A stretch of DNA of 35,391 bases from Candidatus Omnitrophota bacterium (GTDB lineage: Bacteria > Ratteibacteria > UBA8468 > B48-G9 > DTJG01): the NCBI GenBank assembly GCA_023818375.1, contig JAMWCC010000061.1:1-35391 (forward strand), in the 5' to 3' direction. A program made the translations under genes and the position numbers. Shown piece after piece: positions 28,802 through 30,866 of this stretch; position 1 is the stretch's first letter, and every line of letters begins with the position of its first letter. The notes beneath the pieces are model-generated. The model was not told where the DNA came from. It saw only the letters and a program-made list of their open reading frames with translations, and ran no database searches.

Positions 28802-30264
28802 ACCTCTTTACTCCAGGAACAGGGTTTCCTGACCTTGAAGTAAAAATTGCGTATGGACTTGCAAGAGTGGGGATTGAAGCAGGCCTCAAATTTAGTATCA
28901 TCCCTGAAAAAGGGTTTTATACAATTGAATTTGAGAAGATTTCCTACGATAGACTCAAGCAATCTTTCTTGAATATACTTGTAAGACTTTTATCATCAGA
29001 CAGGTTTTTTGATTTAGGAGTAAAAGCGAAGGACAAGGGGAAATACTCAGTGAAAAATGAGATTTTTGAAAATTTAAAAGATACTGTTGATTTTTCGCGG
29101 ATGTTTAATTTAAAAACAACTTCTAATTTGAATATAAAAAGAGATATGTTTTGTGGTCATTCAAATGTCCCTTGTTTTGGAGGCAGTAGCGGTTTAATCT
29201 TAATCTCTTCGTTCCATGCGGGAAAACCTTATGAAAGAGATAAAAGAGCCGCAACATTTAACCAATCCTTATGTGCTGTTTGTGGTTATCTTGCTGTTTT
29301 GGGCCTTTATTCGTTTGGCTTCAATATTCAAATGGGACAGGGTAAAAACAGAAAATTTGCTGTAATATTGCCTATACCTAAAAATGAGCTAAAATCTGAT
29401 AATTTGGCGATGCTATTGTCGTTGCAAAAAACTCTACATAATTTCTGGCTTTCTGATATACAACCCTTGAGAACATTTACAGTTGGTTTATTGGCAAAAG
29501 TCCCTGCTTTAAGCGATGTTGTCAATGAACTACACCTGACTTTCCATCTGTCGTTGGCATGTAAAGATAATAGAGGTGATACAGCGGTTGAGCAAACAGA
29601 AACTATTGACGCATTTCCTTTTTCAAAATTTATTTCAAGTTCATCATATAATCCTGCGACTGTAATTAAGTTATTGGGCTCTTTTAAGGTGCTACCTAAG
29701 ATAGCATCATTAGTTGAGTTAACAAAGATCCTTGAAAAAAGTGAGATAATGAGCTTAACAAAATTCGCCCGTCTTTACACACAAGAGACCTCACCAAAAA
29801 AAGGTGAATGGGTAAATCTTCTATATCCAGAAACGGCAAAATATCTTTTAAGGGAGGTGGCAATGATTCGTTCAGAAATAATTGAAAATCCCGCCATAGG
29901 AAGTCTTGCGAGAACTTTAAGATATTTCATCAGAGAAAGGAAGTATGGCTATGCTGACGATATTAGGAATGCAAGGAAGGAATCAAGGGATTTTGAAGAG
30001 ACAGTTGCAAAGATGCTAAGAGAAGGAGAATTAAGAAGAGTTCAACAGGAACAAGAAAGGCAAAGGGGTAAAAAAATTGATAATTGGATCCATATGCCAA
30101 AAGAGGCTGAAATTAAGGAGATCTTTAGAATTGCCAGTGAAGATTTTGAATCCACAAAATTAGCACTGGTGATGCTTGCCTTTTCCTTCCCGGCAAAAGA
30201 TGAACTATCTAAGGAGTCAGATCAGGAGGGACAAAATGAAAGAAAAGATAATAGCGAAGATTAA
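28792..30264 (+). CDS. cas8: Type I CRISPR large subunit, Cas8a-like, with Cys cluster
   Basis: Position between cas3'' and cas7; CGHSNVPC...CAVCGYL zinc-finger-like cysteines; KYLLREVAMIRSEIIENPAIGSLARTLRYFIRERKYGYADDIRNARKESRDFEETVAKML helical C-terminus. Start MSINLFTPGTGFPDLEVKIAYGLARVGI (28792). Confidence 0.8.
   Translation: MSINLFTPGTGFPDLEVKIAYGLARVGIEAGLKFSIIPEKGFYTIEFEKISYDRLKQSFLNILVRLLSSDRFFDLGVKAKDKGKYSVKNEIFENLKDTVDFSRMFNLKTTSNLNIKRDMFCGHSNVPCFGGSSGLILISSFHAGKPYERDKRAATFNQSLCAVCGYLAVLGLYSFGFNIQMGQGKNRKFAVILPIPKNELKSDNLAMLLSLQKTLHNFWLSDIQPLRTFTVGLLAKVPALSDVVNELHLTFHLSLACKDNRGDTAVEQTETIDAFPFSKFISSSSYNPATVIKLLGSFKVLPKIASLVELTKILEKSEIMSLTKFARLYTQETSPKKGEWVNLLYPETAKYLLREVAMIRSEIIENPAIGSLARTLRYFIRERKYGYADDIRNARKESRDFEETVAKMLREGELRRVQQEQERQRGKKIDNWIHMPKEAEIKEIFRIASEDFESTKLALVMLAFSFPAKDELSKESDQEGQNERKDNSED
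29852..30264 (+). other. Predicted internal translation unit in cas8: SD plus in-frame ATG giving a ~133-aa Cas11-like small subunit
   Basis: GGGAGGTGG (29852-29860) then ca-ATG (29863-29865), in frame with cas8 (codon 358); product MIRSEIIENPAIGSLARTLRYFIRERKYGYADDIRNARKESRDFEETVAKML..., charged and helix-rich in appearance. Confidence 0.6.
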
Positions 30265-30526
30265 AGAGCATCTCCCAGAAATAAAGGAAAGGTTTAAGGT
30301 CAGGGAAATTGGTATTTTTGGGTCTCAGATAAAAGGTAAGTCAAAAAGGAAAAGTGACATTGATATACTGGTTGAATTTCATGAAGGCGGCGAAACATTT
30401 GATAATTATATGGAACTTAAATTTTTTCTGGAAGGGATTTTCCATAGAAAGGTTGACCTGGTTCTAAAAAATGCATTAAAAGAAGAAATAAAAGAAGAGA
30501 TCCTCGCAGAGGTTAAGTATGCCTAA
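30236..30526 (+). CDS. mntA: MNT-domain nucleotidyltransferase antitoxin (MntA-like)
   Basis: GIFGSQIKGKSKRKSDIDILVEF carries the exact GSX10DXD motif. SD AGGAGG (30224-30229), ATG at 30236; the track ORF start at 30176 lies inside cas8. Confidence 0.88.
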   Translation: MKEKIIAKIKEHLPEIKERFKVREIGIFGSQIKGKSKRKSDIDILVEFHEGGETFDNYMELKFFLEGIFHRKVDLVLKNALKEEIKEEILAEVKYA

Positions 30527-30866
30527 AAGAAAGTTTATACTTCTTTTGAACGATATCTTGAAAAGTTCAGAAAAGATTCTAATCCTCTCTAAAAATAAGT
30601 CCCGCAATGATTTCATCCAGAATTGGATTTTAGTCGATGCTACTATTAGAAATCTTGAAATAATAGGAGAAGCAGTCAAAATTTTGCCATATGAGTTAAA
30701 GAAAAGGTATCCCCATATTGAATGGAAAAAAATCGCTGGATTAAGAGACATATTGATTCACGAATACTTCGGAATTAATTACACCATCTTATGGGATATT
30801 GTGAAAAATAAAATTCCCGATTTGAAAGAACAGATTCAGAAAATAATAGAAGAACTACCCAAATAA
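30519..30866 (+). CDS. hepT: HEPN-domain toxin (HepT-like, DUF86)
   Basis: WKKIAGLRDILIHEYFGINYTILWDIVKNKIPDLKEQI contains the RX4HXY motif (R-DILI-H-E-Y); overlaps mntA by 8 nt. Confidence 0.9.
   Translation: MPKRKFILLLNDILKSSEKILILSKNKSRNDFIQNWILVDATIRNLEIIGEAVKILPYELKKRYPHIEWKKIAGLRDILIHEYFGINYTILWDIVKNKIPDLKEQIQKIIEELPK

What the first reader, a model, noticed from the sequence alone, without database searches (positions are those of the whole stretch)
30236..30866. MntA/HepT (MNT-HEPN) toxin-antitoxin pair embedded inside a type I CRISPR effector operon, between cas8 and cas7
Seen: two small genes lie in-line between cas8 and cas7, co-directional and overlapping their neighbours (mntA starts 29 nt inside cas8; hepT overlaps mntA by 8 nt; cas7 starts 15 nt after hepT). 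Both catalytic motifs look intact: GSX10DXD in the nucleotidyltransferase (GSQIKGKSKRKSDID) and RX4HXY in the HEPN protein (RDILIHEY). Established: HepT is an RNase toxin neutralised by MntA-catalysed AMPylation of the motif tyrosine. Inference: the module may work as (a) an addiction/guard element making loss or inhibition of the Cascade genes toxic (analogous in logic to CreTA), (b) an abortive-infection arm released when CRISPR is blocked, or (c) an RNase functionally coupled to interference. Its position in the middle of the effector genes argues for co-expression with Cascade rather than a chance neighbour.
Basis: partly seen in the sequence, partly recalled or inferred. Interest (0 to 1): 0.88.

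Follow-up and report, generated by a model that had tools for sequence, protein, structure and literature searches.

The report
Toxin–antitoxin pair inside CRISPR effector operon
A bacterial CRISPR immune operon carries a complete HEPN/MNT toxin–antitoxin gene pair between two of its core genes; relatives in several phyla carry the same or other toxin–antitoxin pairs beside the same core gene, usually with the toxin already broken, which suggests a tolerated "addiction" passenger rather than a working part of the immune machine.

Summary
The pair meets the published Class I HEPN/MNT (type VII) definition. The host operon is a type I-A-like system with a Cas8a-Csa5 fusion.

The synteny recurs. 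Five other genomes carry mntA and/or hepT, or remnants, immediately before cas7. The CRISPR-linked MntAs form one supported clade against 58 MntAs not adjacent to cas8/cas7, although adding homologs of unknown context blurs this. Unrelated toxin–antitoxin pairs also flank cas8 in related operons: DUF433/DUF5615 at cas8-cas7 (3 loci) and Class II HEPN/MNT at cas3''-cas8 (4 loci).

Against a role in interference, hepT is damaged in all five other loci, while mntA stays intact in two. The window operon is a mosaic: the block holding the pair matches other TA-bearing operons, the rest a same-genus operon without the pair.

Best reading: an operon-embedded addiction module, spread with recombining cas blocks and prone to toxin decay. 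TA pairs in cas cassettes, and the maintenance idea, were already published; this family, the fixed junction and the decay pattern appear to be a new variant.

The parts
26395..28092 (+). cas3' helicase
   Evidence: TIGR01587 213 bits, PF22590/PF00270
28055..28801 (+). cas3'' HD nuclease
   Evidence: TIGR01596 43.0 bits (cut-off 43.45), PADLOC Cas3 HD models
28774..30264 (+). cas8a with C-terminal Csa5/Cas11a domain (one fused protein)
   Evidence: PADLOC Cas8a 305 bits, residues 8-340; Cas11/Csa5 residues 345-484; TIGR01878
30236..30526 (+). mntA, minimal nucleotidyltransferase (predicted antitoxin), 96 aa, GSX10DXD intact
   Evidence: PF01909 55.7 bits; AlphaFold model pLDDT 85, best PDB match 1wot (TM 0.77), S. 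oneidensis MntA mostly TM 0.61-0.68
30519..30866 (+). hepT, HEPN RNase (predicted toxin), 115 aa, RX4HXY intact (R76, H81, Y83)
   Evidence: PF01934 101.5 bits; AlphaFold model pLDDT 91, best PDB matches S. oneidensis HepT 5yep/6m6u/7bxo, TM 0.66-0.69 for most chains
30882..31868 (+). cas7 (Csa2/DevR family)
   Evidence: PF01905 177.8 bits
31872..32636 (+). cas5
   Evidence: TIGR02593 40.1 bits
32629..33123 (+). cas4
   Evidence: PF01930 187 bits
33120..33857 (+). cas6
   Evidence: TIGR01877 134 bits
33848..34111 (+). cas2
   Evidence: PF09827 86 bits
34118..35113 (+). cas1 (I-B type)
   Evidence: TIGR03641 471 bits
35281..35377 (+). first two repeats of a CRISPR array (GTTGTGAGCCTACCTATGAGGAATTGAAAC) at the contig end
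   Evidence: Rfam CRISPR-DR2, two matches, reported on the minus strand of that model; repeat scan
29810..32170 (+). approximate recombined block: end of cas8 (Csa5 part), mntA-hepT, cas7 and start of cas5
   Evidence: Segment identities: cas7 76-86% to TA-bearing L084/L035/L081 but 54-65% to same-genus G005; flanking genes are closest to G005. Limits are approximate.

Best explanation
This is a Class I HEPN/MNT (type VII) toxin-antitoxin module that lives inside the Cascade operon. mntA and hepT are presumably co-transcribed with cas8 and cas7 (inferred from spacing and overlaps). MntA is expected to AMPylate Tyr83 of HepT and so silence its RNase activity (inferred from the characterised pairs). 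While the operon is expressed the cell is safe. Events that remove or break the antitoxin but leave active toxin are selected against, so the module, and with it the cas block in which it sits, is retained until a mutation kills hepT first. It therefore works as an addiction passenger of the cas7-side block, moving between type I-A operons by recombination, and not as a part of target interference. Shown: presence, intact motifs, recurrence, toxin decay, mosaic operon. Inferred: toxicity, neutralisation, co-expression, retention effect.
For: Motif-complete pair of the right families and folds. Same junction in six genomes from at least three phyla. Direction of decay: hepT deleted with mntA intact in L035 and L084; both damaged in L030 and L081; hepT N-truncated by foreign DNA in L040; no locus with mntA broken and a full-length hepT. 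mntA under purifying selection (dN/dS about 0.1-0.2, dS near saturation). Mosaic: the block with the pair matches L084/L035/L081, the rest matches TA-free G005. The Cas7 tree puts the MntA-HepT loci in three places while their MntAs form one clade against 58 MntAs of known context (98/88). Unrelated TA families also sit beside cas8 in related operons. Precedent: vapBC pairs interspersed in cas cassettes with a suggested maintenance role (PMC4390879).
Against: No toxicity, AMPylation or expression data. With a covalently acting antitoxin, classical post-segregational killing needs turnover or removal of the AMP mark, which is unproven. Decayed toxin in five of six loci can equally mean that the module has no benefit. 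The one-clade result for MntA is lost when 119 homologs of unknown context are added, and HepT does not form one clade. Several loci are from fragmented MAGs.
Confidence: 0.48

Rival explanations
1. Pure hitchhiker: a mobile TA pair landed in a permissive junction of a long operon and persists only as a generic TA element; CRISPR gains nothing.
For: HEPN/MNT pairs are common: four PF01909 proteins in this genome, and MntA relatives in 101 of 299 Nitrospirota and 56 of 148 WOR-3-phylum genomes. hepT decays in all five other loci. The operons also hold other cargo: type III modules and ATPase-like genes.
Against: Three TA families at the two junctions flanking cas8 and none at cas7-cas5; reading overlaps and ribosome-binding sites preserved; CRISPR-linked MntAs are each other's closest context-known relatives.
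Confidence: 0.27
2. Backup abortive-infection arm: when phage factors shut off or inhibit the operon or MntA, unmodified HepT cleaves RNA and stops the cell.
For: HepT is an RNase in characterised pairs (PMC7641770). Coupling of immunity and suicide is a published hypothesis (PMC3506569). PADLOC lists related MNTs as candidate defence proteins PDC-S09.
Against: The toxin is lost in five of six loci while Cas7 and, except in L040, Cas8 are kept; no sensor domain is present; nothing ties MntA to Cascade in sequence.
Confidence: 0.18
3. Integral part: MntA or HepT binds Cascade and contributes to interference or its regulation.
For: Position between two Cascade subunit genes; mntA kept without hepT in L035 and L084; the PDB holds a protein named Cmr1-MntA (9z7q, 9z7v, 9z7x), i.e. 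an MNT domain joined to a type III CRISPR subunit.
Against: Most related operons lack the pair: 19 of 27 tabulated loci have nothing of TA kind between cas8 and cas7. hepT is dispensable. The Cmr1-MntA domain matches this family only weakly (E 0.0076), and its paper could not be found.
Confidence: 0.05

Closest known systems
HepT/MntA of Shewanella oneidensis and of Thermococcus cleftensis CL1 (type VII TA, Class I HEPN/MNT; PMC7641770)
   Same: PF01934 + PF01909 neighbours, RX4HXY and GSX10DXD motifs, antitoxin gene upstream of the toxin gene, same folds; motif Tyr at residue 83, close to Y82 of the archaeal toxin
   Different: Below NCBIfam equivalog cut-offs, shorter proteins than the S. 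oneidensis pair, and located inside a Cascade operon
vapBC pairs interspersed in Sulfolobales cas cassettes (PMC4390879)
   Same: TA pairs inside cas gene cassettes; a maintenance role was suggested there
   Different: Different TA family; archaeal cassettes (example given: type III-D); no fixed junction or toxin decay described in the passage read
CreTA guards of CRISPR-Cas (PMC9458426)
   Same: TA logic that could make loss of Cascade genes costly
   Different: CreTA is RNA-based and repressed by Cascade itself; here two proteins and no ectopic repeat near the pair
TA modules linked to CRISPR loci in the FLSHclust survey (PMC10910872)
   Different: HEPN/MNT not named in its main text; supplements not read
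Class II HEPN/MNT (PF05168/PF01909) pairs at the cas3''-cas8 junction of related operons (L041, L053, L055, L060)
   Same: TA-like pair in line in the same operon type, next to cas8
   Different: Other HEPN family, other side of cas8, all four copies look intact

Membership tests
Class I HEPN/MNT (type VII) toxin-antitoxin | Neighbouring PF01934 (or PF08780) and PF01909 genes | tested here: met
   genes overlap by 8 nt
Class I HEPN/MNT (type VII) toxin-antitoxin | RX4HXY in the HEPN protein | tested here: met
   RDILIHEY, residues 76-83; invariant R, H, Y in 44 homologs
Class I HEPN/MNT (type VII) toxin-antitoxin | GSX10DXD in the MNT protein | tested here: met
   GSQIKGKSKRKSDID, G29 to D43
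Class I HEPN/MNT (type VII) toxin-antitoxin | Toxin is a toxic RNase, AMPylated and neutralised by the antitoxin | not testable with these tools
   needs expression and biochemistry
NCBIfam equivalogs HepT_toxin NF047751 / MntA_antitoxin NF047752 | Score above curated cut-off (60 bits) | tested here: not met
   46.8 and 49.7 bits: a homologous subfamily, not filed under these two models
CreTA (CRISPR-regulated RNA toxin-antitoxin) | Ectopic, degenerate CRISPR repeats next to the toxin in the cas locus | tested here: not met
   No repeat-like site of 19/30 or better outside the array except one at 20421, 10 kb away
Type I-A CRISPR-Cas | cas8a, csa5/cas11a, cas7a, cas5, separate cas3' and cas3'' | tested here: met
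   csa5 is fused to cas8a; cas1, cas4 and cas6 score best with I-B models
Subunit of Cascade | Stable presence in the effector operon across relatives | tested here: not met
   TA genes or remnants between cas8 and cas7 in 8 of 27 tabulated loci, of which MntA-HepT in 5; toxin decayed elsewhere

The most novel reading that the evidence does not exclude
Protein TA pairs are dedicated drivers of cas-gene exchange. HEPN/MNT and other TA families lodge at the boundaries of cas8, the fast-changing large subunit. By addicting recipients to the imported block, they promote the spread and fixation of new cas7-side blocks between type I-A operons, after which the toxin decays.
Probability: 0.2. Interest if true: 0.78.

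Novelty: new variant of a known kind. Interest (0 to 1): 0.55.

Why it matters
TA pairs have long been suspected to hold cas loci in genomes, but mostly from loose neighbourhood. Here a defined TA family sits in line between two Cascade genes, recurs in at least three phyla, decays toxin-first, and lies in a block that has visibly recombined into a TA-free operon background. That makes the question "do TA pairs retain or spread CRISPR genes?" testable with a short operon fragment and matched natural variants: intact pair, antitoxin only, both broken, none.

Tried and rejected
Rejected: lone occurrence (five further loci). Rejected: CreTA-like RNA guard (no ectopic repeat). Rejected: independent transcription unit as the default (no forward terminator-like site between the stem in cas3' at 27324-27340 and 33634; promoter-like hits are fewer than in shuffles, 25 against a mean of 32.9), although absence of a promoter is not shown. 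Not supported: a strictly CRISPR-exclusive MntA/HepT lineage. The clade is clean with context-known sequences but three non-CRISPR MntAs fall inside, on weak branches, once 119 unknown-context homologs are added, and HepT is unresolved. A formal position-bias test was not made: if the three TA families are counted as about four independent insertions over four junctions, the preference for cas8 flanks could be chance.

Full report
Observation. All coordinates in the finding are right. cas8 ends at 30264; mntA (30236-30526) starts 29 nt inside it behind AGGAGG; hepT (30519-30866) overlaps mntA by 8 nt; cas7 starts 15 nt after hepT at 30882. MntA is PF01909 (55.7 bits) and HepT is PF01934 (101.5 bits). 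The motifs GSX10DXD and RX4HXY are intact; R76, H81 and Y83 of HepT and G29, S30, D41 and D43 of MntA are invariant in alignments of 44 and 35 homologs. AlphaFold models are confident (pLDDT 91 and 85). HepT's best PDB matches are S. oneidensis HepT chains (TM mostly 0.66-0.69); MntA's are 1wot (0.77), with S. oneidensis MntA mostly at 0.61-0.68. Both proteins fall under the NCBIfam equivalog cut-offs, so this is a homologous subfamily of the characterised pairs. Yao et al. (PMC7641770) define Class I HEPN/MNT pairs by PF01934 or PF08780 next to PF01909 plus the two motifs; the window pair meets that.

Host operon. cas3', cas3'', cas8a fused to Csa5/Cas11a, [mntA, hepT], cas7, cas5, cas4, cas6, cas2, cas1, then a CRISPR array at the contig end. 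This is an I-A-like effector with I-B-like adaptation genes. No forward terminator-like site lies between the stem in cas3' (27324-27340) and one in cas6 (33634), and promoter-like matches are fewer than in shuffles. Each gene of the module has its own Shine-Dalgarno-like stretch; cas7's (GGAGGTGCAAAATG) is of the same kind as at junctions without a module.

Recurrence. Searches with Cas7 and Cas8 gave 27 loci whose junctions could be tabulated, plus L040 with only the cas7 side. MntA/HepT or remnants lie at the cas8-cas7 junction in: the window (both intact); L035 (mntA intact, hepT reduced to a few codons); L084/L091 (mntA intact, hepT internally deleted, first ~21 and last ~12 residues kept); L081/L092 (mntA frameshifted with a damaged motif, hepT remnant); L030 = L050 (both frameshifted; the motif Tyr of hepT also lost); and L040 (hepT without its first ~11 residues, mntA and cas8 gone). 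A protein from another assembly (P0201, 88 aa) has the same N-truncated MntA as L030, which makes an assembly error there less likely. These genomes belong to the window's small phylum, the phylum of L035 (3 genomes held), the WOR-3 group and Nitrospirota.

Other TA pairs in the same operon type. L048, L051 and (decaying) L085 have DUF433 + DUF5615 between cas8 and cas7. L041, L053, L055 and L060 have an MNT + PF05168 HEPN pair (Yao's Class II) between cas3'' and cas8. cas7-cas5 gaps are 42 nt or less in every locus where they could be measured. The operons also carry other cargo: Cas10/RAMP (type III-like) modules between cas3'' and cas8, and ATPase-like genes between cas5 and cas4 (named from sequence inspection, not profile-tested). 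So the junctions are permissive, and position alone proves little.

Relationships. On the Cas7 tree the MntA-HepT loci fall in three places, with window, L035, L084 and L081 as one supported clade (99/95). The five CRISPR-linked MntAs form one clade (98/88) against 58 MntAs not adjacent to cas8/cas7 (one of them, L138, near a cas1). In that set every MntA at 65% identity or more to the window's is beside cas8/cas7 and none at 60% or less is. Adding 119 homologs of unknown context dissolves this resolution, and the HepT tree does not unite the CRISPR-linked toxins. A single CRISPR-dedicated lineage is therefore possible but not established.

Mosaic operon. Against same-genus G005, which has no module at the junction, the window's cas3', cas3'', cas8 residues 1-200 and cas4-cas1 are its closest relatives among those compared (62-86%), but cas7 is only 54-65% identical. 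Against TA-bearing L084, L035 and L081, cas7 is 76-86% identical and cas8 residues 101-300 only 23-38%. The block from the Csa5 part of cas8 to the start of cas5, with the TA pair inside, thus appears to have been exchanged as a unit (inference from identities; breakpoints are approximate).

Mechanism. Established for characterised pairs: HepT is an RNase, and MntA adds AMP to the motif Tyr and silences it (PMC7641770). Inferred here: the pair is co-expressed with Cascade and silent; losing antitoxin before toxin is costly; hence the pair holds itself, and the block around it, in the operon until hepT mutates. The data fit toxin-first decay: intact mntA with dead hepT twice, both dead twice, never full-length hepT with dead mntA (L040's truncated hepT is the borderline case). 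Purifying selection on mntA (dN/dS about 0.1-0.2, dS near saturation) says only that it was functional for most of its history. The same decay says that HepT is not needed by these CRISPR systems, which lowers the backup and integral-subunit readings.

Known or new. TA pairs in cas cassettes and a maintenance role are published for Sulfolobales vapBC (PMC4390879); [quoted passage not shown] CreTA is a proven RNA guard (PMC9458426). None of the papers read describes HEPN/MNT pairs between cas8 and cas7. PDB entries 9z7q/9z7v/9z7x hold a protein named Cmr1-MntA, a sign that MNT domains can be wired into a type III effector; no paper on it was found. Verdict: new variant of a known kind, moderate interest, well suited to direct tests.

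Noticed in passing
window 28774-32170: The operon is a mosaic: the cas8 large-subunit part and cas4-cas1 are closest to same-genus G005, while the cas8 Csa5 part, cas7 and the start of cas5 are closest to operons of other phyla.
   Followed up: partly
L041:7900-8599, L053:7890-8590, L055:3840-4537, L060:3700-4404: Intact Class II HEPN/MNT pairs (PF05168 + PF01909) lie between cas3'' and cas8 in four related operons.
   Followed up: yes
L048:9419-9990, L051:9419-9990, L093:8630-9172: DUF433 + DUF5615 TA-like pair at exactly the cas8-cas7 junction; intact in two, decaying in the third.
   Followed up: yes
L045:4608-8560, L048:3979-8016, L056:4630-8595, L092:1239-8869, L093:2139-7230, L096:3218-12159: Whole type III-like (Cas10/RAMP) gene sets appear to sit in line upstream of cas8 (between cas3'' and cas8 where cas3'' is in view), giving I-A/III hybrid operons (sequence inspection only).
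   Followed up: no
L042:2436-3770, L049:2010-3254, L059:6152-7402, L094:11582-11875: ATPase-like genes (GPRQAGKTT/GPRQSGKTS motif), or a remnant, between cas5 and cas4 in several related operons.
   Followed up: no
window 28774-30264: Csa5/Cas11a is fused to the C terminus of Cas8a in this bacterial I-A lineage; the Csa5 part is far better conserved than the rest.
   Followed up: partly
L138:3-1776 (WOR-3-phylum genome G434) and L009 (genome G012): Other, distant MntA/HepT pairs lie near a cas1 (two tandem pairs) and near a cas6-like piece.
   Followed up: no
PDB 9z7q, 9z7v, 9z7x (chain named Cmr1-MntA, 438 aa): A solved protein joins Cmr1 of type III CRISPR with an MNT domain; no paper on it was found in the library.
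   Followed up: partly
L030:5323-5657: The decayed hepT reads RDILIHDFG, i.e. the motif Tyr, the AMPylation site of characterised toxins, is missing, besides a frameshift.
   Followed up: partly
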